Origin: Ascidia mentula
Lineage: Eukaryota > Chordata > Ascidiacea > Phlebobranchia > Ascidiidae
Direction: 5' to 3'
DNA: 64,000 bases
NCBI GenBank assembly: GCA_947561715.1
Contig: OX387197.1
Coordinates: 1,555,001 to 1,619,000, forward strand
Shown here: positions 1 through 53,600 of the stretch, one piece after another
How positions within the stretch are numbered: the first letter of the stretch is position 1
Layout: each line of letters starts with the position of its first letter
Notes under the pieces: model-generated
What the model was told of the DNA's origin: nothing
The model's input: the letters and a program-made list of their open reading frames with translations, nothing else
The model's database searches: none
Made by a program: the position numbers and the translations under genes

Positions 1-458
1 TATTCTGGAAGACATCGCCAGGTTCATCAACATTTGTAGAAACGGACCGGTTGGGTTCAGTGCCTTCAGTAAGTTGTTTATTGACAAACGAATATAAAAT
101 ACACAAGCATGGAGTCAATAATATGAATTTGTGATCATGTCAACCTCAAGTTTGTGAGAATATCATCCTCATCTTCCCATCATCTTCGTTTCAGGGAAGA
201 AGGTGAGTGAGGAACAGGAGACGGAACTTTACACGTTCATGCCTTGAGATATTTTATTTCAAGTGGCCGTGGTTCCTATATCATAGAAGATGTTGTTTAT
301 GCTTCGATCCCGCTAAAAGTTTGATTCGCCCTGTACCTAAATGTATTTTTTTCAGGCAACAGGAATTGCAACTACAAGTGAAGCAATTATTAAACCTTGA
401 GAAAAGCAGAAAAAGTTCGAAACTTCAAAAGGTCACAAGTTGCCCTGTTACTACGTGA
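1..458 (+). pseudogene. TRPM-like channel 3' end, copy A (broken)
   Basis: Three pieces of the last coding exons of a TRPM-family cation channel. The window opens inside an exon reading LEDIARFINICRNGPVGFSAF, ending at 68 before a GTAAGT donor. A second exon starts at 195 after TTTCAG (KKVSEEQETELYTF) but is cut at about 238, where sequence that is intronic in the copy at 28 kb follows directly, so a deletion has removed the rest of the exon and its donor. The last exon starts at 356 and ends with TGA at 456-458 (QQELQLQVKQLL...CPVTT). In TRPM channels this region follows S6 and ends in a coiled-coil-like tail, and the Glu/Lys/Gln-rich exons fit. With the exon deletion this copy cannot give the intact tail seen at 27972-28505. 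Assignment rests on the more complete copy at 17906-19127. Confidence 0.65.
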
Positions 459-964
459 GCGATGACCTTGAAGCACAAACGAGGTCATGCAATCGTGTCT
501 AGTGCAAGCATCACATAAATGAAGCAGCTTGTGTATTTGTAATTGCCTCAATGTCCATTTGCCTGCGCTTGTGTTTCTTTGCCACTTTTCCATTTTCCGT
601 GTTATGTAAAAATGTTTTTTTCATTTGATTGATTTCCATCATTGCTTTCACAGACTTTTCTTTATTGTTTCTGCACTGATTTCATTAAGTTTCGTATAGG
701 CTACATCAGTGCCTTATTAAAAGTTGCTGTTTTCAACTTTGCGATTTTGAAATTGAATGATTTTATAGTTCCTTTGAAATTCTTTTAAAGCGTGAACTAT
801 TTATTTAACCAGATAATAAAATTCCGCGTGTATTTATTATCCTGACTGGAATCTAATAATTGATTTATTAACTCTTACAATGGATTAATTACAACACACA
901 TACTTCTAGTAGTTGGAAGTTTTGTTTCATCGTCTCCAACCATTGCACGTTTACAACGTTTCAA
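459..964. other. Intergenic spacer shared by the duplicated blocks
   Basis: No gene seen. The same spacer separates the TRPM tail from the small secreted gene at 17.4-17.9 kb (inverted), 28.5-29.0 kb and 60.4-60.9 kb, so it marks the extent of the segmental duplication. Confidence 0.6.
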
Positions 965-1572
965 TTATTGCACGTGGGTGATGGTAACAACCAATGACCA
1001 CTGGGGTCGACACAAATTCCACGCTAGACCATTCGGAGTACTTCCTGTACATGGACAATAGTACGACACAAAATCATAAGGTGGATAGTAGGATTTTTTC
1101 GGATAGTAATCAACTCCAGTGATCGTTGGAGGAAATTGACATCCTGTAAAAAACTTGAGATGGTTAAATGTAACAAGAAGAGTGATTACAATGCTTTTGC
1201 TCAACCTGAAACCTAAAAAGAATACTTCTTAAAACCGATAATATGTTTGCAGCACAATTGTACTACTTCCTGCGTGTGCAGTACAACTTACAGCGCATCT
1301 ATTTGTTTCTCACCTAATATAATATGTTGGAACATTACAAGACAAGCTTTCTCAACGCGTTTGTTTCAGCTGTCCACGTGGTCAGGTAATGAACACGGTG
1401 ATCCCCCAGCTAAGAAACCGTTTTACAGAAACAATAAACTTATAGCCACCATTAATGTGACAATAGAAATGGTCGATTTATTTTTCCATTGGTTTAGTTA
1501 AGGTAGGGTTTGCTTACCTTCCACACCGATAAGTAGAACAGCAACCAGCAGACACGATAATGAACGTTTCAT
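965..1572 (-). CDS. Small secreted Cys-rich protein, two exons (copy A)
   Basis: Two exons joined in phase: 1572-1518 (ATG, then a hydrophobic signal peptide, MKRSLSCLLVAVLLIGVE, donor GTAAGC) and 1143-965 (acceptor TTTTTTACAG, stop TAA at 967-965). Together they make 234 nt, or 77 residues. The mature part would be about 58 residues with four cysteines and the order C-PPTITG, YPKKSYYPPYDFVSYYCPCTGS, C, W. This recalls one sushi/CCP module but lacks a normal fourth-cysteine pattern, so the family call is tentative. It is probably extracellular. The gene is convergent with the upstream TRPM tail and is repeated with it in every block; the copies at 16.8, 29.0 and 60.9 kb are frameshifted or truncated. 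This is the only copy with both exons open. A small non-conserved ORF artefact is the main alternative, but the signal peptide and phase match argue against it. Confidence 0.6.
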
Positions 1573-1856
1573 TTTCTTCTCTTTACAAGTGGTGATTGAA
1601 TATTGAAGTTTTACTAAAATACCAATCGTTAGATTATGACTTGAAATAGACTATCATGAGGTTTTCAGGCTTGGCAGCCCAGGCAATCCAGCCCAGCTGG
1701 ATCAGCCACTTTTTCCTGACAAGTCGGAACAAGATTTGAAAAATCAAGCTCTATACGGTGGTAGAGATCCCCTACGTATATGTGAAGGTTGCCTGGCAAG
1801 TTGTGCGCTTGCGCACCAGTGTACCTTGGCCACAATGTACCCCGTGAAACCACTGA

Positions 1857-1929
1857 GCTCCTGTAGCTCAGTTGGTAGAGCGTTGGGCCTGGTTAGCCCA
1901 GGGTCGTGAGTTCAAACCTCACCGGGAGC
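1857..1929 (+). tRNA. tRNA-like module of the SINE, unit 1
   Basis: 73 nt that fold as a cloverleaf: acceptor GCTCCTG/CGGGAGC (one G-T), D arm GCTC/GAGC with loop AGTTGGTA, anticodon arm TGGGC/GCCCA with loop CTGGTTA (anticodon GGT by position), T arm GTGAG/CTCAC with loop TTCAAAC. One extra base lies between the D and anticodon arms. The A and B box positions of a Pol III promoter are preserved. It is part of a repeated element, so it is more likely a SINE promoter than a working tRNA gene. Confidence 0.5.
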
Positions 1930-2222
1930 TTGATTTTTCAAATCTTGTTCCGACTTGTCAGGAAAAAGTGGCTGATCCAGCTGGGCTGCATTACCTGGGC
2001 TGCCAAGCCTGAAAACCTCATGATTGCGATACGTTAGCTGTGATCGCCAAGCAAGGACCTGCGCAGTGGGGCGATCCTGCCTATCATGCCATTGCATGAA
2101 ATATTACTGCGTCATCTGATACGGTGGTAGAGATCCCCTACGTATATGTGAAGGTTGCCTGGCAAGTTGTGCGCTTGCGCACCAGTGTACCTTGGCCACA
2201 ATATACCCCGTGAAACCACTGA

Positions 2223-2295
2223 GCTCCGGTAGCTCAGTTGGTAGAGCGTTGGGCCTGGTTAGCCCAGGGTCGTGAGTTCAAACCTCACCGGGAGC
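2223..2295 (+). tRNA. tRNA-like module of the SINE, unit 2
   Basis: The same 73-nt cloverleaf as at 1857-1929, 366 bp downstream. The acceptor 5' strand is GCTCCGG instead of GCTCCTG. The anticodon loop and T arm are identical. Same caution: SINE head, not a confident tRNA gene. Confidence 0.5.
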
Positions 2296-2479
2296 TTGAT
2301 TTTTTAAATCTTGTTCCGACTTGTCAGGAAAAAGTGGCTGATCCAGCTGGGCTGCATTGCCTGGGCTGCCAAGCCTGAAAACCTCATGATCGCGATACGT
2401 TAGCTGTGATCGCCAAGCAAGGACCTGCGCAGTGGGGCGATCATGCCATTGCATGAAATATTACTGTTGAAATAGACTA

Positions 2480-2743
2480 ATTAGATTTTAGTCAAAATCA
2501 AAAGCGATCGTAACACTAGCTGTAAAACCAACGGTACGTCAACTTATTGATAATGTGGTTTTTGCTGAGCTTGATATTTTAAATCCTACGTAGTTTAAAG
2601 CAAGCCATTCGCAAACAGACGAAACCTTCCTGTTTTTCTTGGAAGTTAACATAACGACAGCGTTGGCATTTCCTGCAACTTATTATAATTTAATTGACAA
2701 GCAGGAAACCAAAACAATAGCAATGTCGTATGTCATGTAAGTA
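2480..2743. other. Non-coding spacer, inverted match at 16.6-16.7 kb
   Basis: No gene seen. The first part (AAAACCAACGG... to the GCTTGATATT region) recurs inverted at about 16600-16690, marking one edge of the inverted duplication. Confidence 0.5.
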
Positions 2744-3010
2744 TAAGGACCCATGGACATGGCATATGTCATGAGCAGACTCGAGCTTGGCCCATCACGA
2801 CCCATGCGAGTATAAGGACCCATGGACATGGCATATGTCATGGGCAGACTCGTGCTTGGCCCATCACGACCCATGCGAGTATAAGGACCCATGGACATGG
2901 CATATGTCATGGGCAGACTCTTGCTTGGCCCATCACGACCCATGCGAGTATAAGGACCCATGGACATGGCATATGTCATGGACAGACTCGTGCGTGGCGC
3001 ACCAGGAGCC
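2744..3010. repeat. 69-bp minisatellite, about four units
   Basis: The motif GGACCCATGGACATGGCATA recurs at 2747, 2816, 2885 and 2954, a constant 69-bp period. 69 is a multiple of three, so open frames with 23-residue repeats appear on both strands; these are by-products. The paralogous site near 19.36-19.47 kb has a single unit. Confidence 0.85.
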
Positions 3011-3491
3011 ATGCGAATATAGGTACACGCCTATGGAACGGAGGAATTTCTATATAAAGGCTTGGTCCTATCCTCATTCTTACAAAATAGGTCCTTGCAT
3101 CGACACATTTTCATTTTCCTGGTGTTTATATTATAAAAGACGTTGTTTGTAATTATGTTCTTAATGGAGATTTCACAATGTAAATTGTGGTAATGACATG
3201 GACGTTTTGGAAATAATTCCACCTGAAACTAAATATATAGATGTGGTTGTGGCAGAGCAACTCGTCCATAAATCCAACTTGAATTCTTCAGGCAATGTCG
3301 CCGGATTATTTGGATTTTTTTGCAAACTTACAGTCTTTCTTAAACCTTGATATAAACGTTCCCAACTTAACTCTATTTTGTCTTTTAATATTTGTGGTTG
3401 CGAAATTTGTGCTATTGTTGCTTTGACGTTATTACAGCAAAGTTCGGAACTTGACGGCAAAATTTGGGAGATGATAGATCACATTCTATTG
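3011..3491. other. Non-coding spacer between minisatellite and MITE
   Basis: No gene supported. Segments of it recur at 19.6-19.9 kb and 49.87-50.08 kb, so it belongs to the duplicated block upstream of the kelch-like genes. Confidence 0.5.
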
Positions 3492-3652
3492 CAATGCTTC
3501 CCAACCTTTTTCAGTTCGCGACCCACTTTTAATGCAAGTTTTATTGTGCGACCCACAATGAGATATGACCAAACGAATGACATGCAACAATTTCGTGATC
3601 TAATAGAAAACTGTAACATTTAGAAATGCGACCCACTGGTTGGGATGTACTG
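3492..3652. mobile_element. hAT-type MITE, 161 bp
   Basis: Imperfect terminal inverted repeats, left CAATGCTTCCCAACC and right GGTTGGGATGTACTG, with near-matching 8-bp flanks TTCTATTG/TTCTAGTT. The same element sits at the equivalent place at 50090-50250, so it predates the duplication. No coding capacity. Confidence 0.65.
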
Positions 3653-4042
3653 TTCTAGTTGAACAAACTCCACATACGTATACTTATTTATCTGTAAAAG
3701 CTATAAATAGACCAAGGCCAAATATTTTTTAAAAACCGATCACACAACGAAATAGTTCTCGTGCAATGCTTAAATAATTAAAAGCATCAGTTTGTTTGAA
3801 AATTTATGTGTCACTCAATGTTTGATGGTCAAAATAAATTTTGAAATAATTTAACTGAAAAAAAATAATTATTACTTTCTGATCACTCAAGCGTGGTGTA
3901 AAGGTGGTTCCCCTCCGGTGTGACATTAGTTCCGTTCTCGGAAATGCTGCAAAAAATAAAAAGAATTTATTTGCAAACATTAAGGGTTTTACACTAGACC
4001 CGGTATTTCATTTCACTGTCAGTTTAACTTTTTGTCTTCATC
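3653..4042. other. 5' flank of kelch-like gene 1
   Basis: Non-coding and closely matched by 50251-50653 upstream of kelch-like gene 3. It should contain the promoter and 5'UTR of the gene starting at 4043, but no TATA box or other element can be called with confidence. Confidence 0.4.
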
Positions 4043-7000: not shown

Positions 7001-9596
7001 CTGTGTCTTAATGTATAGTTTCATTGTCATCAAATTTTGTTAAGAAAATGATCACAGATAGAGTGAACTCAACTTCAGCCAAATTTGGTGAAAGTGTTTA
7101 TGTAATGGGTGGAGAAGGTCCAACACGAAGTTGTGAGATGTTGAATTTGGAGGAAAGTAAAAACTGGGTAAAAATTGCTGGTTTGTTGGAAGGTCGACGT
7201 TTTGCTGCATCTGCTGTTGTTGGAGGTTGGTGTGGTTATTTCAAAAATTGTTGATTACTAAACCAGGGGTTGTTCCAGGAATAAAGGATTGGGGAAGCCC
7301 CTTACACAAGTTGTCATGGCAATAAAAATTAACGCGGTGACAGACAAAGTGTTTTGTTAATATTTATTTCCGTTTATCACTAGTGTGTTTTGTGTGGTTT
7401 ATGACTATCTTCTCATCTCTCAACCAACTCATTCACCTTTTAGGTCGAAACAGTGGCCATCTGTCTGCAGCTTATACCCAACTCATTCTTGTTGCTCACC
7501 ATAACTTTTGTTAGTAATACCCCAGAGAAAATTTGTGGATTCTGCCACGACTACATAAGCAAAATTTGTTTGTACTTTTGACAGTATTACTGACACTTTA
7601 CTGACAAGTTACCAATTAAACAGAAAATTGTTCAACTAAGTTTTTAGAAACATATGGTAAATCTGCAGACAGGGTGTGTACACGCACTGTTTCGACCTGT
7701 AAGATCTCATCAGTGCAGCTGTTGAGTGGCACTGTGCTAGCTTTCACACTAGCAGGCACACTAGTCTCCACTTTGTGGTACCTTTCGGTCAACGTTGATC
7801 TGCAGGGTACCCTATACTAGGTACCGAACAACAGAGACGACGAACCACTGTGGTCGACGTTGGCCGAAAGGTACCACAAAGTGGAGACTAGTGTGCCTGC
7901 TAGTGTGAAAGCTAGCACAGTGCCACTCAACAGCTGCACTGATGAGACCTTACAGGTCGAAACAGTGCGTGTACACACCCTGTCTGCAGCTTTGCAATAT
8001 TATGGCTTTTTTTGCACATATGTGGTAAATATTTGGTGAATATGGATGGACAACCTTGTTTTCAGTAATTACAAACAAATTTAGGTGACTTGTATCTCAC
8101 GGGGGGTGATGGAAACCAAGGAGCATTCTCATCAACTTTGTGTTATTCTGTACAAGAAGACAGATGGAGAAGTGGTTTCGACATGTTACAACCAAGATAT
8201 GGGCATGGAATGTGTTCAATTGACAGTAAGAATACATCTGAGTTCATTTTTGTATAGGATTAATCTCATTACTGGACCTAGGCCTAAATAGTTGGCATGC
8301 ATCTGAAACAACAACATAATTAACCGGAAACCATAAATTAAAGTAATCAGTAAATCCACTCTATTTACCCCAACAATATTCACTTTTGGACATGAAAGTG
8401 TTGTGAACGCCGACCTCAAACTTGCCAGAAATGCAGGAAATATTCCATCTTTATTTTGTAGTTCTTTATGACATGAATTTGAACTTTAATATTGATTAAT
8501 TTCAATTAAAACCCCGATTGAAAGCTGATCGCTTATTTGTACGTTAAACGCAGTGCTTACCTCATTGCTTGTTACGTAACATTACAACATAATCGTAATA
8601 TGACGTCACAATAAATATTAACACCAGCGATTTGAAAATTCAGATGTTTTGTTTTCTGTGGGTGGAAGTAATGGCAGACAATTCTTACAATCATGTGAAT
8701 TCCACGATGTTCGTGTTGGAACCTCCACAAGAATCGCTTCTCTCAATGAAGCAAGAGGTCGTTTAGCATGTGAAGAAATTAAAGGGAAGATCTATGCAAT
8801 TGGTTAGTGATGAAAAGTTAAGCAATAAAATTAACAGTAAGTGGTTTTTGTGTAAATTTATAAAATACAAATTCATATTCGTCACCGGTAAATGTATCAC
8901 GTGATAAATATAATGGAGTTTCCTGAAAAGAATCCTAAACATAAAAACTAGTAGATATAACTATAAAGTATTAACCTAAAAACAATAAAAAGTTTTACTT
9001 TAAATCTGACAGGAGGTTGGGGTGGTCGTGACATGCAAACAGTTGAAGAATACGAACCTAGAGTCAACAAATGGAAATATGTTTCTCCTCTCCTAAAACC
9101 TCGTTACCTTCACTCTGCTTGTGTTATTGATGGGAGGATTTATGTTGTGGGTGGAGGGTAAGAATTACTATTATGACGTCACTATAGTCCACTGTTTCCC
9201 GTTTTATGTGAAAATGTAAATGTTGAGAAACTGGGACAAGTGGGATATACGATGTTATACTTGATTAACAACACGCATAAAATGTTTGTTAAATTTAAAC
9301 ACTTTGTATTATACAAGGTTGTATAGGTGGTTTGGTTTAGTGGTGTAGGGGTCTGCGGGTGTACGTTGGTTTGTTTTTGTTAACTTATAAAATTTAAGTT
9401 TTAGTGAAAAATGTTGTAGAAAAACTTACCTGTGTTTGTTGTGTGCCTGGTTCATGAAACTGTATCATGTTTGTTTTATAGGAACTTGGTTGGAGGACTC
9501 ACATCAGTTGAAGTTTACGATCCAACCTCAGATGTTTGGACACATGCTTTTGATCTTGACAAACCAGTTTATAATGCAACTGTTGTTGCTGTTTAA
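4043..9596 (+). CDS. BTB-BACK-Kelch (KLHL-type) protein, copy 1, complete
   Basis: Twelve exons with consistent phases: 4043-4104, 4155-4278, 4940-5093, 5347-5564, 5813-5956, 6017-6122, 6583-6674, 7045-7225, 8085-8225, 8644-8802, 9013-9157, 9482-9596 (TAA). The CDS is 1641 nt, 546 residues, the usual KLHL size. Exons 1-3 give a BTB fold (SIHDAVVCSMSDYFNALL, then LDYIYTGDIEVTEKNV), exons 4-5 a BACK domain (NCLKLRAYATRYNL; VRWVNFNPSHREDL), and exons 7-12 a kelch propeller at about one blade per exon (GG pairs followed by spaced Y/W, such as VYVMGG and IYVVGG). KLHL proteins are normally substrate adaptors for Cullin-3 ubiquitin ligases; the substrate here is unknown. The start is the first ATG of exon 1, conserved in copy 3. 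Intron 8 carries two hammerhead-related insertions. The short N-terminus before BTB is typical of compact KLHLs. No stop or frameshift was seen. Confidence 0.9.
7435..7479 (+). mobile_element. 45-bp truncated hammerhead-element insertion in kelch intron 8
   Basis: Flanked by 9-bp direct repeats AACTCATTC (7426-7434, 7480-7488). Its sequence is the 3' part of the hammerhead element: half of stem II (AGGTC), GAAA, the stem III hairpin, GTC and TGCAGCT, then TTATACCC. The paralogous intron at about 20637 lacks it. It is 5' truncated, so not itself a ribozyme. Confidence 0.75.
7661..7720 (-). ncRNA. Hammerhead ribozyme, left arm of foldback
   Basis: Minus strand: stem I 5' strand AGCTGCA (7720-7714), core CTGATGA (7713-7707), stem II GATC...GGTC (7706-7694, one G-U), GAAA (7693-7690), stem III CAG/CTG closing a loop with a GTGTACAC palindrome, then the cleavage triplet GTC ending at 7668, and stem I 3' strand TGCAGAT (one mismatch to the 5' strand). 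All conserved hammerhead core bases are present. Confidence 0.85.
7663..8016. mobile_element. Foldback element with a hammerhead ribozyme in each arm
   Basis: A 354-bp insertion in kelch intron 8, flanked by near-identical direct repeats (CATATGGTAAAT at 7651-7662; CATATGTGGTAAAT at 8017-8030). The paralogous intron at about 20809-20830 has the uninterrupted site. The arms (about 7664-7798 and 7851-7990) are near-perfect inverted repeats around a loop of roughly 50 bp. Each arm ends outward in a type I hammerhead. No ORF. The head-to-head pairing resembles the inverted copies described for Penelope-like elements, but this element encodes no protein. Confidence 0.85.
7932..7991 (+). ncRNA. Hammerhead ribozyme, right arm of foldback
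   Basis: Plus strand: stem I AGCTGCA (7932-7938), core CTGATGA (7939-7945), stem II GACC-TTACA-GGTC (7946-7958), GAAA (7959-7962), stem III CAG (7963-7965) paired with CTG (7980-7982), T at 7983, C17 at 7984, then TGCAGCT (7985-7991) pairing fully with stem I. Predicted self-cleavage is after GTC, between 7984 and 7985. This is a canonical type I hammerhead without a core mismatch. Confidence 0.92.
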
Positions 9597-12037: not shown

Positions 12038-12634
12038 CTAATCACGCATCGCGTCGTCGCGGCACAATAAGCACAATTTTGCGATTGGGCGTCTTAACGC
12101 ACCAGCGTGAGTCTTCACGATCACCTGACGCACAACTCCTTTCCGATCAGGATGTTCCTCAATCACTCGACCCAGGAGCCACTTGCTCCGGGGCTGGTTG
12201 TCATCCGCCACAAGAACCACGTCATTGACCATAAAATTCGAATGTCCACTTGCCCACTTCGATCTGGGCATGAGCGTAGGCAGGTACTCGCGAGACCATC
12301 GCCTCCAAAACTGATCGGCCAGGTATTGTACCTGACGCCACCGGTTTCGATGGTAACAGTCCTTCCCCGTTAACAGTCCTGGGGGCATATTCGGCGCTGC
12401 ACGTTGCAGCAGCAAATGATTGGGAGTAAAGGGCTCCTCATCCTTCGGATCGAACGTCACTGGGACCAAGGGACGGGAGTTTAGGATTGCCTCGACCTCT
12501 ACCATCAGAGTGCACAACCGCTCATCAGACAACGTCTGTTCCGAGAGCAGGGCGTTGAGAATTTTGCGCACAGAGCGTATCATGCACTCCCATACCCCAC
12601 CCATGTGGCTGGCAGTGGGGGGAATAAAACTCCA
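12038..12634 (-). pseudogene. BEL/Pao pol 3' end (integrase C-terminus), truncated
   Basis: Minus-strand frame with [20 protein letters not shown], an [14 protein letters not shown] segment, and the C-terminal region typical of BEL/Pao integrases ([21 protein letters not shown]-like [17 protein letters not shown], then a KLCLL ending). This corresponds to the end of the integrase core plus the DUF5641-type tail. It stops at 12635, where the inverted-repeat transposon begins; the open frame running on to 12706 is transposon sequence. The catalytic Asp residues lie in the missing part. The sister copy at 25417-26310 is longer. Downstream on the minus strand come the polypurine tract and the LTR. 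Confidence 0.8.
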
Positions 12635-13570
12635 CACTGTAAATGCAAACGTGTATGACTTTCCACCTACATGCGTGGTCCAAAAATTATCACCCCATGT
12701 TGTCACATTCCACCCTCAAGGAATGGGGTGTTTTATACCACCCCACATTGTCACACCCTAAAGTTGGTCATATCACACGATTTTAGTTTGTTTTCACCAT
12801 CCTACACAAGTAGTTTCATTGCTTAGTCTCCAGCTGTTTATTTCACATCTAAAGATATGCAAACATAAATGACACTGTAAAATTGCAAACAATTTCAGTA
12901 CTCCAATGCATTTGTGAACGTAAAAGGGGACAGTAATGGATTTTTTTGGAAAGAGGTCGCGTTGAAGAACGAAAATACACACCAATACAAAGCTGCTCAC
13001 ATAGTTCAATTAAATTGTGAATTACAGTTTGTTTAGTACTCTTTGGACAGAGATACAACTGCTATTTTGAAGTTTAAGGATACGACAAATTAATTCAAGT
13101 GATTTTTTGCATGAATTTGGAAAAGAAACATCAAAGACCCAATAACATGAAATCATACACACAAATGCTTGAACCAAATCCAAGCACACACAAATACATT
13201 GATGATCCAAGAACACTTGTATTTTCTCAACATCAAAGGCAGAAATTACAGGATAAGGTGATTTTGGAGTTCCTTCCTACAAAAAATTGTAAAATTTTTA
13301 GGTGTATGTTGAAAATAACCGCCCAACATACGTTTTTTACATGCCTACACACACAAATACTAAATTCTGTTCAGCTTACTTACATTGGTTGTAAAAAAAT
13401 CCTGATAACTATCCCTAAAGATTGTTGGAACATACAGCAATACCTCCAGCATCATTCCTAAAATGAAATTCTTTCAATTTGAATCTGTTTTTAATTTTTC
13501 CCACAAACCTATGCAATCAATTTCTAATTGTTCTCTTGCAATCTAAGAAATGTGTGAAATTGTACCTTAA

Positions 13571-15900: not shown

Positions 15901-16791
15901 TTCAAGTTCTCCAAAAAATTGTACTGGTTATACATTTTCAATATTTTATAGCTATGCAGTACATTATAAAAATAGATATAATTAACAAACCATGCTTGCC
16001 ACTTTTCTCTTTTCTGTAATCGTGGATGTTACTAAATTATGCAGGCTACAAAACTAACAACCCTACCAACAGCCAGCGCGATGCGTAAAAGGAAAGAGGC
16101 AACTGTCCGTCACGTGACGTGATGCCTCATTTTTCACATAGAAATAAAGTCGGTCTTCGTTTTCACAACATAATTCTATTTAAGTGATTTCGGGTTGATT
16201 TTAATGTTGGTTATTCTGATATTTCAGAAATTTAAAACAAGCTGAAAACTGAAATTAGAAAACACAAAGTTCAATCGTTCATAATTAAACACAATGGGAA
16301 CGCGTATACCGAACTTACTACTGCAACAAACTGCCGCGTTTTCATGACACAAAGGCCAATCGCTTTAGGTTTTTAAACTTCTCCTGTATTTAATTGTAAG
16401 GTATCACTTTACTAGATGGAGAATTTACATCAAAGGGTGGTATCACACATCCTCTAAACAAACTTGTGAATACTATTACATTTTAGGTGTAAACTAATGA
16501 CCCTTTTCAAAATTCCACCCCAAAATTACCAGTGGGGTGTTAGTGCACACGCTCTGCTATGTAAAATCCACCTTTTGCGTTTACAGTGTAGGATTTTAGA
16601 ATATCAAGCTCAGTAAAAACCTCAATATCAATAAGTTGACGTCCCGTTGGTTTTACAGCTAGTGTGGAAGATGGATGTTCAAAAGTTTTTGATTTTTAGT
16701 AAAATCTAATTATTCTATTTCGAGTCATAATCAAACAATTCGGATTTTAGTAAAACTTCAATATTCAATCACCACTTGTAAAGAGAAGAAA

Positions 16792-17369
16792 ATGAATCGT
16801 TATTATCGTGTCTACTGGTTGCTGTTCTACTTATCGGTGTGGAAGGTAAGCAAACCCTACCTTAACTAAACCAATAAAAAAATAACTCGACCATTTCTAT
16901 TGTCACATTATTGGTGGCTATAAGTTTACTGTTTCTGAAAAACGGGTTTCTTAGCTGGGAGTTCACCGTGTTCATTACCTGACCACGTGGACAGCTGAAA
17001 CAAACGTGTTGAGAAAGCTTGTCTTATAATGTTCCAACATATTATATTAGGTGGGAAACAAATAGTTGCGCTGTAAGTTGTACTGCACACGCATGAAGTA
17101 GTACAATTGTCCTGCAAACATATTATCGGTTTTAAGAAGTATTCTTAGGTTTCAGGTTTAGCAAAAGCACTGTAATCACACTTCTTGCAACATTTAACCA
17201 TCTCAAGTTTTTTACAGGATGTCGATTACCTCCAACGATCGCTGGAGTTGATTTCTATCCGAAAAAATCCTACTATCTACCTTATGATTTTGTGTCGTAC
17301 TATTGTCCATGTACAGGAAGTATTCCAAATGGTCTAGCGTGGAATTTGTGTCGACCCAGCGGTCATTAG
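16792..17369 (+). pseudogene. Small secreted Cys-rich protein, inverted copy B (frameshifted)
   Basis: Copy of the gene at 965-1572 in opposite orientation. Exon 1 (16792-16845) is one base shorter than in copy A, which destroys the signal peptide frame; the second exon (17218-17369) keeps GCRLPPTIAGVDFYPKK and SYYCPCTGS but has one C fewer in the run after TGTCGA and stops early at TAG 17367-17369. Two frameshifts make this a pseudogene. The intron between them aligns with that of copy A. Position and orientation show it is part of the inverted duplication covering 16.6-18.5 kb. Confidence 0.7.
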
Positions 17370-17905
17370 TTGTTACCATCACCCACGTGCAATAATTAAA
17401 ACGTTGTAAACGTGAAATGGTTGGAGAAGATGAAATAAACAAATTCCAACTACTAGAAGTATGTGTGTTGTAATTAATCCACTGTAAGAGTTAATAAATC
17501 AATTATTTGTTCCAGTCAGGATAATAAATACACGCGGAATTTTTATTATCTGGTTAAATAAATAGTTCACGCTTTAAAAGAATTTCAAAAGGAACTATGA
17601 AATCATTCAATTTCAAAATCGTTAAAGTTTAAAACAGTAACTTTTGATAAGGCACTGATGTAGCCGGTACAAAACTTAATGAAATCAGTGCAAAAACAAT
17701 AAAGAAAAGTCTGTGAAAGCAATGATGGAAATCAATCGAATGAAAAAAACATTTTTACATAACACGGAAAATGGAAAAATGGCAAAGAAACACAAGCGCA
17801 GGCAAATGGACATTTAGGCAATAACAAATACACAAGCTGCCTCATTTATGTGATGCTTGCTCTGGACATGATTGTTTGACCTTGTTTGTGCTTCAAGGTC
17901 ATGGT
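17370..17905. other. Spacer, inverted copy of 459-964
   Basis: No gene seen. It aligns base for base, inverted, with the spacer between the TRPM tail and the small secreted gene in block 1. Confidence 0.55.
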
Positions 17906-19127
17906 TCACGTGGTAATAGGGCAACTTGTGACCTTTTGAAGTTTCGAACTTTTTCTGCTTTTCTCAAGGTTTAACAATTGCTTCACTTGTAGTTGCAATT
18001 CCTGTTGCCTGAAATAAATACATTTAGTTACAGGGCGAATAAAACTTTTAGCGGGATCGAAGCATAAACAACATCTCCTACGTCATAGGCACTTTAAGAG
18101 TCGGTTTAAAGTCATTGTTGTGTGGATTCGAATCCTAACCAACTTACTGCTCAACGATCATTGTCATGAGATGTTCGTCTTTGTCTTCTTCTTCCTTCTT
18201 CTTCATTATCTTCTGGAGGACATGTTGTTCGAACGTGTAAAGTTCCGTCTCCTGTTCCTCACTCACCTTCTTCCCTGAAACGAAGATGATGGGAAGATGA
18301 GGATGATATTCTCACAAACTTGAGGTTGGAATGATCACAAAATTCATATTATTGGATCCATGCTTGTGTATTTTATATTCGTTTGTCAATAAACAACTTA
18401 CTGAAGGCACTGAACCCAACCGGTCCGTTTCTACAAATGTTGATAAACCTGGCGATGTCTTCTAGAATAACAAAAAAAGCGGGAAGCCAAGGTCTGTCAC
18501 AAAACTCTTCAACAACATCGAATCTGTGGTAACTCCAGAATATTCCGGCGCGGTCTTCAATTGTTTGGAATGTGTAACTATAGAAATCATAAACTTACAT
18601 CTACACAACTTGCAAATCATTCATTTCACTTGACCTTGTTCACGGAGTTTAAACAAATTCGACAAAATAACCCAAGATAAATGTTTTTCAGTAATGTTGC
18701 AGGCAGTAGACACAAATACTTTTAACCACACAAGAGTACGAACCTGAACATCGCCATGAGTACATTGAGCATGAGAATGTTCGAGAATAACATGTAGAAG
18801 CAAGTCAACAAAGCCGATACTATCCCGTAACCTGTGGAATTAACAGCAAACTTAAAACAAACTCCATTTTGAAAATTAGCCCACATTGACCGTTCGCAAT
18901 TTGATATCCCACAAATCGAGGCATAATGGGCACTAGCGCCCCCTGGGGACCGTTTGCAATTTGAATTAGACTCCAATAAAAAATTAGCAGGTCACCTTGG
19001 GCCCGAAGTATTTGAACACGAGGTAGACTTGGAAACACCTGATGTACATTGCGAACAAAGCAATACACAGGAATATTTTACCCGCGTACCTTAAGTTGTC
19101 GTTGAACGCTGAGGACCACATTATTCC
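17906..19127 (-). pseudogene. TRPM-like channel 3' half lacking the pore exon(s)
   Basis: Five minus-strand exons: 19127-18996 (S3-S4: FNDNLRYAGKIFLCIALF, then YLVFKYFGPK), 18832-18744 (S6: VSALLTCFYMLFSNILMLN, then VLMAMF), 18577-18402 (YTFQTIEDRAGIFWSYHRF ... RPWLPAFFVILEDIARF), 18274-18148 (KKVSEEQETELYTFEQHVLQ coiled-coil-like tail) and 18008-17906 (QQQELQLQVKQLL, stop TGA). The S6 motif and the FQ..R..LV-type segment after it are typical of TRPM cation channels. Between the first two exons there are only 163 bp, with a duplicated fragment and no S5 or pore sequence, and splicing them directly changes frame (phase 0 to phase 1, immediate TAG). The pore has therefore been deleted. Upstream transmembrane exons are not present in this window. 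Confidence 0.75.
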
Positions 19128-20252
19128 CTGGCCTGGAGACAATACTAAGGTTATATGGCAAGACAACAATGTATTAATTTTTATACAAACACGCCTACAT
19201 TCGTTTATTGTGGATTAAGAATTAATGAGGAACGAAACTTCTACCATGCGGGCATTAGCGCCATTGTGCATTTTCCTTGGAAGTTATCATAACGACAACG
19301 TGGGCATTTCCTGCAACTTATAGTAATTTAAGTGACACGCAAGAATCCAAAACAATGGCAATGACATATATCATGTGAGTACAGGGTGCCATGAACATGG
19401 CATATGTCATGGACAGACGCGTGCGTGGCGCACCAAGACCCATGCAAGCATAGGGTCCTATGAACGCCATTTGATTGCTTTGGAACTGAGGAATTTCTAT
19501 TGAAAGGCATGGTCCTATCCACGTTCTTGCAAATAATTGGCCTTGTTTTTACAGATAAATATGTATATGTTTGTGAAGTTTGTTTCATTACAATGTGATC
19601 TACCCTCTTCCAAATTTTGCCGTCAATTTCCGAACTTTGTCGTAATTACGTCACAACACCAACAGCACAAATGGCAACGTTTACATTAGGGTTTAAGAAA
19701 GACTGTAAGTTTGCAACACAAGCCAAACAATTCGGCGACATCGCCTGAAGAATTCAAGTTGGATTTATGGACAAGTTGCTCTGCCACAACCACATCTATA
19801 TATTTAGTTTCAGATACAATTATTTCCGAAAACGTTTATGTCATTACCTTAATTTTTTATGTCAAAACGTTTATGTCATTACCTGGTTGGGATGTACTGT
19901 TCTAGTTGAACAAACTCCACATACGTATACATATTTATCTGTAAAAGCTATAAATAGACCAAAGCCAATAATTTTAACACTTTTAACATATTTCATATTT
20001 CCCATAAATATACATTTTGTGTGTGTGCAAGTAAATGCAAATTTAAACTAAATTTACCAAGACAACAAATGTCCAGTAACATTCAGGATTTAATGCAAGA
20101 AAAATAATGCAACGTGCCCTGGTTTAGTGTCAGTGCGATTGACTTAACAAAATATATTACTAGTTTATAGATTGTGACTTTCTATTATATAGTGAAACAT
20201 GTAAATCACTTTCCCTTGATGTTTTGGTTTATTGTCATCAAATCTTGTTAAG
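19128..20252. other. Non-coding block upstream of partial kelch copy 2
   Basis: No gene supported. It contains one unit of the 69-bp minisatellite family (about 19360-19470), fragments of the spacer seen at 3.2-3.4 kb and the right end of the MITE of 3492-3652. Around 19.97 kb the sequence jumps from material equivalent to 3.72 kb to material equivalent to 6.7 kb, which marks the deletion that removed kelch exons 1-7. Confidence 0.6.
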
Positions 20253-22320
20253 AAAATGATCACAGACAGAATGAACTCAACTTCAGTTAAATTTGGTGAA
20301 AATGTTTATGTAATGGGTGGAGATGTTCCAACACAAAGTTGTGAGATGTTGAATTTGGAGGAAAGTAAAAACTGGGTAAAAATTGCTGATTTGTTGGAAG
20401 GTCGAAGTTGTGCTGCATCTGCTGTTGTTGCAGGTTGGTGTGGTTATTTCTGAAATTGTTGATTACTAAACCAGAGGCTGTTCCAGGAATAAATGATTGG
20501 GGAAGCCCCCCTCACAAATTGTCATAGCAATAAAAAGTAACGCGGTGGCAGACAAAGTGTTTTGTTAATATTTATTTTTGTTTATCACTAGTGTGTCTTT
20601 GTGTGGTTTATGACTATTTTCTCATCTCTCAACCAACTCATTCTTACTCCTCACCATAACTTTTGTTAGTAATACCACAGAGAAAAATTGTGGATTCTGC
20701 CACGACTACGTCAGCAAAATCTTTTTGTACTTTTAATATTGTTACTGACACTTTACTGACAAGTTACCAATTTTTGAACACAAAATTGTTCAACTAAGTG
20801 TTCAGAAACATATGGTAAATATTTGGTGAATATTTAGATGTTTATCAACAATTATAACTTTTCTGGACAACCTTGTTTTCACTAATTACAAACAAATTTA
20901 GATGACTTGTATGTCACGGGTGGTCAAGGAAAGCATGGAGTATTTTCATCAACTTTGTGTTATTCTGTACAAGAAGACAGATGGAGATGTGGTTTCGACA
21001 TGTTACAACCAAGATATGGACATGGAACGTGTTCAATTGACAGTAATAATATGTCTGGGTTCATTTGTGTGAAGATTATTCTCATTACTGGATTCAGGTC
21101 TAAATAGTTGGCATGCATCTGAAACAACAACATAATTAACCAGAAACCATAAATTAAAGTAATCAGTAAATCCACGCTATTTACCCCAACAATATTCACT
21201 CTTGGACATAAAAATGTTGTGAAACGCCGGCCTCAAACTTACCAGAAATGCAGGAAATATTCCATCTTTATTTTGTAGTTCTTTATGACATGAATTTTAA
21301 CCATAATATTGATTAATTTCAATTAAAACCTCGATTGAAAGCTGATCGCTTATTTGTACGTTAAGAAACGCAGAGCTTACCTCATTGCTTGTTACGTAGC
21401 ACTACGGCATGATCGTAATATGACGTCACAATAAATATTAACACAAGCGATTTGAAAATTTCTTCAGATGTTTTGTTTTCTGTGGGCGGATGGGATGATG
21501 ACAGACAACTCTTACAATCATGTGAATTCCCCGATGTTCGTGTTGGAACCTCCACAAGAATCGCTTCTCTCAATGAAGCAAGAAGTGATTTAGCATGTGA
21601 AGAAATTAAAGGGAAGATCTATGCAATTGGTTAGTGATGAAAAGTTAAGCAATAAAATTAACAGTAAGTGATTTTAAAGGAAATTTTACAAAATACAAAT
21701 TCATATTCGTCATCGGTAAATGTATCACGTGATAAATATAATGAAGTTTCCTGAAAAGAATCTTAAACATAAAAACTGGTAGATATAACTATAAAGTATT
21801 AACCTAAAAACAATAAAAAGTTTTACTTTAAATCTGACAGGAGGTTGGAATGGTGGTGGTGGTCGTAGCTTCCTGCAAACAGTTGAAGAATACGAACCTA
21901 GAGTCAACAAATGGAAATATGTTTCTCCTCTCCTAAAACCTCGTTGCTTTCACTCTGCTTGTGTTATTGATGGGAGGATTTATGTTGTGGGTGGAACGAG
22001 GTAAGAATTGATATTATGACGTCACTATAGTCCACTGTTTCCCGTTTTATGTGAAAATGTAAATTTTGAGAAACTGGGACAAGTGGGATATACGATGTTA
22101 TACTTGATTAACAACTCGCATAAAATGTTTGTTAAATTTAAACTTAAAACACTTTGCTTTATACAAGGTTGTATGTGTGGTTTGGTTTAGTGGTGAAGGG
22201 GTCTGTGGGTGTACGTTGGTTTGTTTTTGTTAACTTATAAAATTTACTTTTAGTGAAAAATGTCGTAGAAAACTTGCCTGTGTTTGTTGTGTGTCTGATT
22301 CATGAAACTGTATCATGTTT

Positions 22321-22477
22321 TAAGCAACGTGGAGCCAATAATATGAATTTGTGTATAAGCTGCAGACAGATGGCCACTGTTTCGACCTAAAAGGTCTCAT
22401 CAGTGCAGCTGGTGTGACTATAAGACGACTTTGCTGACCAAACGGCCAAGCAAAGACTTCCACTTTGTGGTGACTAT
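22321..22477 (-). mobile_element. 157-bp hammerhead retroelement-like insertion
   Basis: Minus-oriented insertion with an 11-bp target duplication GTATCATGTTT (22310-22320, 22478-22488), in the last intron of kelch copy 2. The copies at 9.4 kb and 57.5 kb lack it. It carries a complete hammerhead (22358-22410) followed on the minus strand by a short tail starting TTATACACAAATTC. No ORF. Confidence 0.85.
22358..22410 (-). ncRNA. Hammerhead ribozyme in 157-bp insertion
   Basis: Minus strand: stem I AGCTGCA (22410-22404), CTGATGA (22403-22397), stem II GACCT-TTT-AGGTC (22396-22384), GAAA (22383-22380), stem III CAG-TGGCCAT-CTG, T, C17 at 22365, and TGCAGCT (22364-22358) fully complementary to stem I. 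All core bases are canonical and the cleavage triplet is GTC. Confidence 0.93.
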
Positions 22478-22597
22478 GTATCATGTTTGTTTTAAAGAAT
22501 GACATCAGTTGAAGTTTACGATCCAACCTCAGATGTTTGGACACATGCTTTTGATCTTGACAAACCAGTTCATGGTGCGACTGTTGTTGCTGTTTAA

Positions 22598-25416: not shown

Positions 25417-26310
25417 CTAATCACGCATCGCGACGTCGCGGCACAGTAAGCACAATTTTGCGATTGGGCGTTTTAACGCACCAGTGTGAGTCTTCACGAT
25501 CACCTGACGCACAACTCCTTTCCGATCAGGAAGTTCCTCAATCACTCGACCCAGGAGCCACTTGCTCCGGGGCTGGTTGTTATCCGCCACAAGAACCACG
25601 TCATTGACCATAAAATTCGAATGTCCGCTTGCCCACTTCGATCTGGGCATGAGCGTAGGCAGGTACTCGCCAGACCATCGCCTCCAAATCTGATCGGCCA
25701 GGTATTGTACCTGACGCCACCGGTTTTGATGGTAACCATCCTTCCCCGTTAACAGTCCTGGGGGCATATTCGGCGCTGCACATTGCAGCAGCAAATGATT
25801 GGGAGTAAAGGGCTCCTCATCCTTCGGATCGAACGTCACTGGGACCAAGGGACGGGAGTTTAGGATTGCCTCGACCTCTACCATCAGAGTGCACAACCGC
25901 TCATCAGACAACGTCTGTTCCGAGAGCAGGGCGTTGAGAATTTTGCGCACAGAGCGCATCATGCGCTCCCATACCCCACCCATGTGGTTAGCAGTGGGGG
26001 GATGAAAACTCCATGCAATTTCGCGTTGTTGCAGATATTGGTGAATATGCTGTTGGTTCCACTTCTTCAGTTCTTCACGCAGGATACGCTCGGCTCCGAC
26101 GAAATTCGTGCCGTTGTCACTGAAGATCTGGTTTGGACGTCCACGACGACCAATGAACCGTCGAAGGGCTCCAATAAAGGAGTCGGTCGACAATGAATGG
26201 GCTATCTCGATATGTGCGGCCCTGGTGGAGAAACAAGTAAAGATACAACCGTACCTCTTTACCTCACTTCGCCCTTGCTTCACAAGAAAGGGTCCGAATA
26301 CTGAATGCAT
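25417..26310 (-). pseudogene. BEL/Pao integrase and C-terminal tail, truncated at its 5' end
   Basis: A 297-residue minus-strand frame. It opens inside the integrase ([17 protein letters not shown]) and carries the catalytic Asp region ([16 protein letters not shown]) and the catalytic Glu region ([19 protein letters not shown]), followed by the DUF5641-like tail ([35 protein letters not shown]) and a KLCLL ending. The frame is uninterrupted here, but everything upstream of integrase (gag, protease, reverse transcriptase, RNase H) is missing beyond about 26310, where the sequence stops resembling the element. Closely similar to 12038-12634. Confidence 0.85.
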
Positions 26311-26743
26311 TCTGGCTCTGCTGCCAATTCATCTTTCTGAAACATCGTTTGAGTCGTGTTTTGCTCAGTTTATATCATGAAGACTGGAGCGATTTCATGC
26401 GTAATGTGTACTTTTGCCTTAATAAAAAATTAAACGCACCGCTCGTATTTTCGCTGTAGCGACACAATTCTATTCTAATGCCGTTATTCGTGAACTAAAT
26501 TTCCCTATGTTTGTTTCGTACAATTCCAGTTTTGTGCATATATTCTCATGGCAATGTTCAATTCCAAGTGCCCTTGTTAAAAGTTTGGTGAAACAAATTG
26601 AATGTGGGATTCGGTGTCGATATTCGGATTCGGTTTGATTCCAAATAAATAATAACCTCGTGTTTTGGCTGATTACCTGCGGTTTGAACTAAGTTGGCTA
26701 CATTTACTATTAACATCTTTTCCTATACTGCTATAATTTAGAG
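26311..26743. other. Unassigned spacer
   Basis: No gene, repeat unit or recognisable element found between the integrase breakpoint and the hAT element. Confidence 0.4.
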
Positions 26744-50653: not shown

Positions 50654-53600
50654 ATGAAGCGAACACAAGAAGAAATAAACTTGCATCATCAGAAAGTGAT
50701 GAATTTTTTAAACAAGTAAGTTTAATTTATGGAGATTTACTGAAGTTAAACTATTGATATTTTAGTGACAGAAAAGAAACAAAACGATTTTGCAACAGAA
50801 CACTTTGTTCCCAAGGAGAAAACTATTCAATTCATGATGCTGTTGTTTGTTCTATGTCAGATTATTTTAATGCTTTACTTGGTGTTGAGGTAAGTGTGTT
50901 TGTTTTGTAGAAATAATATGAAACCTGAATGTTTGTCTTTTAGTTGTCCCCTGGCCGTAAATACATTGCTGCAATCAAACAAAAAATTAATTTACACAAC
51001 AACAACAGTTCTTCACTTAATTAATTTAGCTTGTTGACAAAACTCATAGGTCATGTGGTATAGTATCTTAACAATTGAGCAACAAACCATAATATTTTAT
51101 ACCTGTCTTTTGTAAACATGCGTACCTAGAGTTGTTCACCCCTTTAGTTTACACCAGGCCTCCATAACACATGGATCGATACCGACATCCAGCTCATGTT
51201 TTGACACAATTGGCTCAGTTGCAACAGCTTAGTCTAGTGTTTGCAAATCTGATAAGCATTTGTTTGAGTTGTTACAATATTAAGGTTTAAATTGTTAAGA
51301 TGGTAAGACTGTTTTTGTTATTACTCGACAATTACATTGGCTTAACTTTTGTAACTATGCTAGAATGCAACTTACTAGATTTATTTATTTTTTGCTATGG
51401 CCCTTGTGATGTTTTATTTGAACAGGACTGATGTATGTTATTATATATAAATTACATACCATGTTCCAAATATTAAAGTTGTAAATTTTGGTCAGTTCTT
51501 TAGACCAGATTGTGTGTGTTTGTTGTGATTGGTTAACTTTGTTTTCTTATAGATGCGCGAGAAATACTCAGATTTTATCAAGGTTGACAATATTCCACCA
51601 AAAAGACTGGAAAGTGTATTGGATTATATTTACACTGGTGATATTGAAGTAACAGAGAAAAATGTGTTGGAAGTGTTGGAAGATGCTGATTATACACAGA
51701 TGCAAGGTATGCATGTTTTAATCTTTACTGATGTTAATGTGTTAAGAGTGATTATGTCAATATATATGTTCTACATGTGTATTTATTTGAGACCTTTTAG
51801 GTCGAAACAGTGGCCATCTGTCTGCAGCTTATACACAAGTGTATTTATTTATTTGCAAACCATGAAAATTTTGCATATTTTAGGTAAAAATTTTTGTGTT
51901 TGACTATTGTCACGTTGTTGACACCAGGGACAAAACAAATTATTTGTAATCAATGGAGAAGTGAGCACAGATATCACTTCTAAATTGGGTGTGGCTGAAT
52001 TTTGTTTTGTCTACACTTTCAGAGTTGAAGTCATTTTGTTGTCGAGTCATCCTTAAAATGACTTCAACCGACAACTGTTTGAAGCTAAGAGCTTATGCTA
52101 CTCGATACAATCTTGCTGATGTGGAAAAGAAAACAAACCAAATGATTGTTGATAACATTGCAACAGTTGTACAACATGATGATTTCATGCAACTTGATGT
52201 TGGTGATATGTCTGCAATCATTAAACAGAGAAACAAAGGGGTAATTATGATTAATTTGTATTTTTTGTTTGTGTTGCAGAGCAGGGTTGTCAAACTTTCT
52301 ATTGCATATGGTGATTAAGCAATAAATTATTAGGCCTCTTATGTAAACCGATATAAGTTGGGTAAGCACTTGATCAGCTCCTGAGATGTCATTTCTTTTT
52401 TAGTCTCACAAAGAAAAAGTTGATTCCAGTTATAATTGCAGTCCTAATGTAAAATGGATTTCACATAGGTTGTAACTTTTACAAGGATTAGTGGACTTTG
52501 CTGCATACCTACATCCAATATTGTTTTCTAAGTATATTTACTTTTTTTCAGTAAAATTATTAATACCAATTTTTTTCAAAAAAATTATTATTTTTATGTT
52601 TAAAGAAGCAGTATTGGTGATTTAAACTCTGTGATGTTTCACTTTTCGTTTCATGCTCTTGGTGTAAATTTAGTATTTGGTGCAGTTGCCAGTGACATTA
52701 ATCACTTCGTCGTTTGTTTAAACTGTTGCTTGTTATTACATATTAGTTGTTGAATGTAGATGGAAGAAGCTGTCTTTACTGGAATGGTTCGATGGGTCAA
52801 TTTCAATCCTTCCCATCGAGAGGATTTGTTTGTGAATCTTTTCTCACAACTTGATCTTTCATCTATTTCCACTCAGTTTCTTACAACTACAGTTAGAAAT
52901 GAAGTAAATTATAAAGTTTATTATTTTTAGACCTTCTGTCGGTGACTTTTTAACATTAGTGTGTTTTTTTTCAGCCCCTCACGAGAAATAGTGTTGAATG
53001 CTGTCATGCAGTCATGGATGCTTTGTCAATGAAATTTGAAAAACCAGGAACAAGTGGAAAAGCAAGTTCAGTTAAAAAAGGTGCAAGATTTTTTTTTTTT
53101 TATTTAATGTCACATTCAAAGCAATTTGTTACACCCACCATCTTTATACCACCCACATATCCTATAACTTCAAGCTCCACTTAAATTTCCCACTTCACAT
53201 TTACTCATGGCAAATAACATTGGAAATATGTGATCAGAATTCAGGGACAGTCAACTACCAACAAGTTAGGGATACAATTCTGTGGGATGAGATTAAAAAA
53301 AATTCCTAAAATAAAACTACACCAAATACAGAAAGATGTGATTCACCATAACTTACAAAATGTGTTAGTTTCATAGCTGAATTTATGAATTTAACTGGAG
53401 GTTGTTGAACACAAATACAAACTCTAATGAATTTGGTTGATTTACGAAGCAACAACTTCACCTGAACAGGGGAAATATATTTCCATTGTTATCACCACAA
53501 GAATTTATTTTACGCACAACAAAACCATAACAAGCAATGTTTATTTTGCAGATTTGTCAGGATTTCTTCTCATTGGTGGAGAAGATTCAAAACGAAAATG

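What the first reader, a model, noticed from the sequence alone, without database searches (positions are those of the whole stretch)
7661..8016. Foldback element with a complete hammerhead ribozyme at each outer end
Seen directly: near-perfect inverted arms, each ending in a type I hammerhead (CTGATGA core, paired stem II, GAAA, 3-bp stem III, GTC, stem I AGCTGCA/TGCAGCT on the right arm). Known: hammerheads occur in Penelope-like elements and in some satellite and retrozyme RNAs. Inferred: either strand's transcript would self-cleave near the element boundary, so this may be a protein-less retroelement that uses ribozymes to define its ends, here as a head-to-head dimer. It sits in an intron of an intact kelch-like gene and could cleave unspliced transcripts.
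Basis: partly seen in the sequence, partly recalled or inferred. Interest (0 to 1): 0.88.

Follow-up and report, generated by a model that had tools for sequence, protein, structure and literature searches.

The report
Two-armed hammerhead retrozyme insertion
This is a tiny protein-less jumping element, present in many copies in its genome, whose mirror-image insertions carry the same footprint as Penelope-like retrotransposons, which suggests which enzyme moves it and how.

Summary
The foldback is real: one insertion (7663-8019) of a non-coding, type I hammerhead (HHR) element with a 291-bp unit, a metazoan-type retrozyme. The 29-nt HHR core has 3193 matches in the 196-Mb genome. Paralogous kelch introns in the same window keep the empty site, so the insertion and its 11-bp target-site duplication (TSD) are direct. 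Its two arms are joined 5' to 5' and the ribozymes point outward. The ends lie 5 and 35 nt past the HHR cleavage sites, so cleavage does not set them.

Elsewhere in the genome, TSD-flanked two-armed copies usually have one short end and one longer 'tail' end. Exactly one tail: 26 of 29 automatically, 27 of 29 after re-reading one locus; 9 of 9 in a second family; 4 of 4 Penelope-like (PLE) insertions fetched, with 12-bp TSDs. Opposed neighbours are minus-then-plus in 35 of 35 listed cases.

Best reading: PLE machinery primes reverse transcription of retrozyme RNA from both cut strands, at two start sites, one per strand. PLE mobilisation of retrozymes was already proposed in print; this footprint for retrozymes I did not find in eight searches of an open-access library.

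The parts
7652..7662 (.). Left target-site duplication ATATGGTAAAT
   Evidence: 10 of 11 bases as in 8020-8030; single copy in the empty paralogue near 20,800
7663..7853 (-). Left arm, HHR sense on the minus strand; runs from unit position 106 at the centre to 5 nt past cleavage (no tail)
   Evidence: BLAST to the 291-bp unit (coordinates converted from L001); end from the TSD
7663..7720 (-). Left type I hammerhead; intact core, stem I reduced to 5 contiguous pairs; cleavage 7668|7667
   Evidence: sequence; fold; sub-threshold Rfam hits
7854..8019 (+). Right arm; runs from unit position 161 at the centre to 35 nt past cleavage (with tail)
7932..7991 (+). Right type I hammerhead, complete; cleavage 7984|7985
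   Evidence: sequence; fold; sub-threshold Rfam hits
7985..8019 (+). Tail: element sequence past the cleavage site, ending at the TSD
   Evidence: same zone in other copies
8020..8030 (.). Right target-site duplication ATGTGGTAAAT
7226..8084 (+). Host intron of a kelch-type gene; joining 7080-7225 to 8085 onward keeps the kelch frame (..AVVGGDLYLTGGDG..)
7435..7477 (+). Second, 43-bp 5'-truncated insertion of a related hammerhead family, between 11-bp TSDs 7424-7434 and 7478-7488
   Evidence: empty in two paralogues

Best explanation
The element is a copy of a non-autonomous metazoan-type retrozyme whose RNA was reverse-transcribed into the chromosome by the machinery of a Penelope-like element (PLE). 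Proposed steps: (1) PLE endonuclease cuts both target strands about 12 bp apart. (2) The two target 3' ends each prime reverse transcription on retrozyme RNA at internal sites just past the hammerhead, one near +35 (tail) and one near +10. (3) Each cDNA runs a variable length, sometimes several units. (4) The two cDNAs are joined at their far ends. The result has both RNA 3' sides and both hammerheads outward, a TSD near 12 bp, and one tail. Shown here: architecture, TSDs, empty sites, the one-tail count, polarity, and the same footprint in PLEs of this genome. Inferred: that PLE protein does it, that both strands prime, and that both primings use one RNA, perhaps a circle.
For: Empty paralogous site and single TSD pair around both arms. 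TSD-like repeats scoring 11 or more in 26 of 46 two-armed loci against 2.2% of 2070 mismatched pairings, and in 13 of 35 single-armed loci against 1.4% of 1190 (one of the 13, L029, is element sequence). One tail in 26 of 29 independent two-armed loci by the automatic cut, 27 of 29 after re-reading L087; 9 of 9 in family 2 with TSDs of 12-15 bp; 4 of 4 PLE insertions fetched, each with a 12-bp TSD. If ends were independent with even odds, 27 of 29 has P = 8e-7, 36 of 38 has P = 2.7e-9. Opposed neighbours minus-then-plus 9 of 9, 9 of 9 and 17 of 17 in the listed cores of both families and in GIY-YIG hits. Multi-unit arms. A purified PLE cuts and extends both strands and starts at two internal sites that bound the tail (PMC11167929).
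Against: No PLE examined carries convincing retrozyme sequence: the one notable match is 44 nt at 75%, E = 7e-4, in L098, so the helper family is unknown. L027 and L074 have no tail on either arm; L087 counts as two tails under the automatic rule. Thirteen two-armed loci had no repeat scoring 8 or more and could not be judged, and the control rate at the score-8 cut is high (23%). One locus, L081, has a plus fragment before a minus arm. Rare variants sit on one arm only 36 times against 5 on both, and the window's own arms differ at 5 of 131 positions, more than 16 of 20 cross comparisons, so the single-RNA step is weak. L014 and L029 start at or next to the cleavage site, which fits linear processed RNA rather than a circle. 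LINEs of this genome were not examined.
Confidence: 0.75

Rival explanations
1. Snap-back: one cDNA folds back on itself, primes its own copying and gives an inverted repeat. Self-priming, on an antisense template, was proposed for Penelope inverted repeats in PMC3846280 (passages).
For: Arms within a locus are more alike than arms of different loci (1.4% against 3.0%), and in nine young loci the arm majority sequences are identical over 1168 positions.
Against: Copying one arm from the other should give equal outer ends. Instead the ends differ in 26 or 27 of 29, 9 of 9 and 4 of 4 cases, and a TSD lies outside both.
Confidence: 0.1
2. A DNA-level foldback element or MITE with terminal inverted repeats, or an inversion after insertion.
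For: Inverted structure with a TSD.
Against: Single-armed and multi-unit direct copies with TSDs exist; centres vary from locus to locus; the two ends are unequal; truncation is on the 5' side of the HHR sense.
Confidence: 0.03
3. LINE machinery with twin priming moves the retrozyme.
For: Twin priming also gives inverted copies inside one TSD (recalled); LINEs were named as possible helpers in PMC7229834 (passage).
Against: Both arms start in fixed zones just past the hammerhead rather than at a 3' poly(A); PLEs here show the same footprint.
Confidence: 0.08
4. Two independent insertions in opposite orientation at nearly the same place.
For: Copies are numerous, and the intron holds a second insertion.
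Against: One TSD pair brackets both arms; opposed neighbours are plus-then-minus in 0 of 35 listed cases.
Confidence: 0.02

Closest known systems
Metazoan non-LTR retrozymes (PMC7229834; parts 1-2 of 6 and passages seen)
   Same: Non-coding unit of about 300 bp, type I hammerhead, tandem copies, dispersed, no LTR, TSDs longer than 4 bp
   Different: Many copies here are two-armed, 5' to 5', with one tail. That paper's main text has no occurrence of 'inverted' or 'head-to-head'. Circular RNA not shown here.
Penelope-like elements (PMC11167929, parts 1-2 of 4 and passages; PMC3846280, passages)
   Same: Inverted arrangement, TSD, tail on one of the inverted repeats, hammerhead near the start sites, tandem units
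   Different: The element has no RT or GIY-YIG endonuclease; its hammerhead has a 3-bp stem III, whereas the PLE type is described as minimal (PMC7761336, passage).
Plant LTR retrozymes (as described in PMC7229834 and PMC7761336)
   Same: Non-autonomous, hammerhead-bearing
   Different: Those have type III hammerheads in LTRs, PBS and PPT and 4-bp TSDs; here type I, no LTR, TSD near 12 bp.
L1 twin-priming inversions (recalled)
   Same: Inverted copy from two primings inside one TSD
   Different: Here both arms begin at fixed internal zones and overlap in sequence; no poly(A) tail seen.

Membership tests
Type I hammerhead ribozyme | Conserved core CUGANGA..GAAA..UH with three helices, stem I open | tested here: met
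   Right arm complete and folded as such; left arm core intact, stem I short, not its minimum-energy fold
Type I hammerhead ribozyme | Rfam covariance model at gathering threshold (a library's criterion, not a defining feature) | tested here: not met
   No hammerhead listed; sub-threshold hits
Type I hammerhead ribozyme | Self-cleavage | not testable with these tools
   Needs in vitro transcription
Metazoan non-LTR retrozyme | Unit of about 170-400 nt in tandem copies, with type I hammerhead | tested here: met
   291-bp unit; L009 has 8 minus and 5 plus hammerheads
Metazoan non-LTR retrozyme | TSD larger than 4 bp when present | tested here: met
Metazoan non-LTR retrozyme | Low GC (text: below 50%; figure legend: below 45%) | tested here: inconclusive
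   47.8%: meets one figure, not the other
Metazoan non-LTR retrozyme | Expressed as circular RNA | not testable with these tools
   No RNA data; L014 and L029 fit linear RNA as well
Metazoan non-LTR retrozyme | Lacks PBS and PPT | not tested
   -
Penelope-like element | Encodes RT with GIY-YIG endonuclease | tested here: not met
   Non-coding, 357 bp; longest frames over it are 72 aa or less. It is not a PLE, only PLE-like in footprint.
Penelope-like element | Inverted arms, TSD, tail on one arm | tested here: met

The most novel reading that the evidence does not exclude
Animal retrozymes are parasites of Penelope-like elements, and each two-armed insertion records two-sided target-primed reverse transcription in which the two cut strands use the two start sites of one RNA, one each. 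The one-tail rule would then be general for PLE integration and would show that the two primings are coupled, for example by a dimeric enzyme on one circular RNA.
Probability: 0.5. Interest if true: 0.82.

Novelty: new variant of a known kind. Interest (0 to 1): 0.72.

Why it matters
The literature states that metazoan retrozyme repeats show no motif from which their helper could be deduced (PMC7761336, passage), and names PLEs a strong candidate because they co-exist and share traits (PMC7229834, passage). A shared integration footprint is independent evidence. Each part of it (two start sites, both strands, one tail) can be tested with a purified PLE protein and retrozyme RNA. It also bears on the origin of PLE inverted repeats, for which self-priming has been proposed (PMC3846280, passage).

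Tried and rejected
Rfam at gathering threshold gave only two tRNAs; the sub-threshold microRNA hits were put down to the long hairpin. The Pfam model PF26215 is not in this library. A first TSD scan mixed element repeats with flanks and was replaced by scans anchored on the cleavage site. A search for the retrozyme unit in nine further PLE end loci gave one weak match (L098). Species identity was not established: among the 120 listed PLE relatives no identity exceeds 51%.

Rows dropped. Of 46 two-armed loci, 13 had a repeat score below 8 and were not judged (L016, L020, L026, L033-L036, L051, L052, L058, L062, L081, L086); of the remaining 33, L018, L019, L040 and L041 were collapsed as duplicates, leaving 29. 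By BLAST ends alone L058 would have two short ends and L020, L062 and L081 one tail. At score 11 or more (22 independent loci) the automatic count is 19 one tail, 2 none (L027, L074), 1 both (L087). L087 was re-read by eye as one tail; L010, scored 22 and 36, was re-read as about 11 and 36 and counts as one tail either way. Some listed opposed pairs are duplicates of one event (C1:4523653 and 4552386; C2:12154789 and 12230680). L009-L028 were chosen as matches to the inverted query, so they favour two arms; L029-L088 were taken in listing order around exact cores, skipping places already fetched. In one search family-1 and family-2 positions are the first 100 listed of 3193 and 1808; the GIY-YIG list is 121 matches from 150 scored of 382 candidates, not each verified as PLE. 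Of 17 opposed GIY-YIG pairs, four were fetched at both ends.

Full report
The observation. The inverted arms are there (7652-7798 and 7854-8000, 147 nt, 96% complementary). The right-arm hammerhead is complete and its minimum-energy fold is the three-stem hammerhead; the left one has an intact core but a stem I of 5 contiguous pairs, and folds otherwise. Rfam lists no hammerhead at gathering threshold and gives sub-threshold hits on both arms. In the genome the 29-nt core, with up to 3 mismatches, has 1604 plus 1589 matches; the pattern read backwards has 0. The element is therefore no chance fold.

The insertion. The window holds several paralogues of the kelch-type gene: the exon-side flank has 41 matches in the genome, most at C1:1.19-1.79 Mb (40 of 117 candidates scored). 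In two paralogues in this window, near 20,800 and 56,050, the element is absent; the first shows one copy of the duplicated ATATGGTAAAT, the second is diverged there. So the element is 7663-8019 (357 bp) with TSDs at 7652-7662 and 8020-8030, 10 of 11 bases alike. The intron is 7226-8084 and the frame continues across it.

Anatomy. An array in L009 (8 minus and 5 plus hammerheads) gives a 291-bp unit of 47.8% GC. Counted from the cleavage site, the window's left arm covers unit positions 106 to 5 past cleavage, the right arm 161 to 35 past cleavage. Two 5'-truncated copies thus meet at 7853/7854, with hammerheads outward.

Sample. Besides the window (L001) I mapped 20 loci similar to the inverted query (L009-L028, biased to two arms) and 60 loci around exact cores in listing order on C1 and C2 (L029-L088). 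By BLAST, 46 of 81 have arms on both strands and 35 on one; 28 of the 60 listing-order loci have both.

Polarity. Among listed exact cores, neighbours of opposite strand within 2 kb are minus-then-plus 9 times and plus-then-minus 0 times in this family, 9 and 0 in a second family (GACCTTTTAGGTC..., 957 plus 851 matches), and GIY-YIG hits within 6 kb give 17 and 0. At least two of the first nine are duplicates of one event. L081 has a plus fragment before a minus arm, so the rule is not without exception in the BLAST maps.

Target-site duplications. Repeats scoring 11 or more flank 26 of 46 two-armed loci, against 2.2% of 2070 mismatched pairings; at score 8 the control is 23%. Single-armed: 13 of 35, control 1.4% of 1190. 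Family 2: 9 of 9, 12-15 bp; 1 of 72 control pairings reaches 11, none more. PLE insertions: 4 of 4 fetched pairs share exactly 12 bp; no control was run for these. Three family-2 copies in the window itself have TSDs: 7435-7477 (11 bp; empty in two paralogues), 51789-51838 (12 bp) and 22321-22476 (12 bp, with two empty paralogous sites).

One tail. I measured how far each arm runs past its cleavage site to the TSD. With a cut at 25 nt, 26 of 29 independent two-armed loci have one long and one short end, 2 have two short ends (L027, L074) and 1 has two long (L087). Re-reading L087 by eye with the TSD next to its ends makes it one tail, so 27 of 29. Long ends are mostly 29-41 nt, short ones -1 to 14 (L010 re-read). 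In the listing-order subset the automatic count is 14 of 16. Family 2 gives 9 of 9, long 37-48 and short 10-19. The four PLE insertions have one tail each, 31-44 nt longer than the other arm (from the offsets and alignments). With independent ends at even odds, 27 of 29 has P = 8e-7 and 36 of 38 has 2.7e-9; for score 11 or more alone, 20 of 22 has 6e-5. Single-armed loci use either end (4 long, 8 short of 12 usable), so a tail on one arm is not forced by sequence.

One template? In nine young loci the arm majority sequences agree at all 1168 shared positions. Two private variants of L011 and one of L012 are on both arms. But over 21 young loci 36 rare variants are on one arm and 5 on both, and the window's own arms differ at 5 of 131 positions. 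Within-locus difference is 1.4%, between loci 3.0%. I treat one RNA per insertion as likely, not shown. L014 (three direct units) and L029 begin at or beside the cleavage site, which fits processed linear RNA.

The helper. The 892-aa frame of L089 has RVT_1 and GIY-YIG domains and relatives in animals. Its 2870-bp units form an array that turns from minus to plus. A loose hammerhead-like motif occurs in 9 of 9 PLE end loci and 8 of 9 further GIY-YIG end loci. No convincing shared sequence with the retrozyme was found (one match of 44 nt at 75% in L098). So the evidence for PLE is in the footprint, not in sequence.

Mechanism. In PMC11167929 (parts 1-2 of 4 and passages) a purified PLE cuts and extends both strands and starts at two adjacent internal RNA sites, the sequence between them being the genomic tail. 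In PMC3846280 (passages) rotifer PLEs have inverted repeats, TSDs and a tail optionally on one inverted repeat, and self-priming on an antisense template is favoured. The paired unequal ends fit one priming per strand better than copying of one arm. Of 20 young centres, 12 overlap by 1-6 bases, 2 are blunt and 6 have extra bases (no chance control).

Position in the literature. Metazoan retrozymes are known (PMC7229834, parts 1-2 of 6 and passages) and PLEs are named there as strong candidates to move them. PMC7761336 (passages) says that no motif identifies the helper. I found no account of two-armed, one-tailed retrozyme insertions in the listings of searches (open-access papers only; the 2014 PLE-hammerhead paper was not held).

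Verdict. The finding is real, a member of a known kind with a new architecture, and it makes an open question testable.

Noticed in passing
window 7424-7488: 43-bp, 5'-truncated insertion of a second hammerhead family (7435-7477) between 11-bp TSDs, in the same intron; empty in two paralogues.
   Followed up: yes
window 22309-22488: 156-bp single-armed family-2 insertion with a tail, 12-bp TSD, and two paralogous empty sites near 9,460 and 57,540 in the window; the intron end and exon start beside it differ from the paralogues and seem partly lost.
   Followed up: partly
window 51777-51850: 50-bp truncated family-2 insertion between exact 12-bp TSDs.
   Followed up: yes
window 10896, 24276, 59123 (-): Three copies of a related hammerhead 3' half (AGGTCGAAATAGCGGCCATCTATCTGCAGCTC) inside what looks like a longer shared repeat.
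   Followed up: no
C1:1.19-1.79 Mb: Large tandem array of kelch-type genes around the window; the flank has at least 41 matches in the genome.
   Followed up: partly
window 1-3700 and 16600-20000: Dispersed inverted and direct repeats between these stretches, and two tRNA-Thr copies 366 bp apart with a 99-bp inverted repeat.
   Followed up: no
window 12038-12715, 25417-26328, 62111-63232 (-): Frames that look like integrase and polymerase pieces of a BEL/Pao-type retroelement (recalled resemblance, not searched).
   Followed up: no
L014, L029: Direct retrozyme copies that begin at or beside the hammerhead cleavage site, as if run off a processed linear RNA.
   Followed up: partly
C67:6134028-6146916: PLE array of five GIY-YIG hits, two minus then three plus, with a 2870-bp unit and several long frames.
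   Followed up: partly
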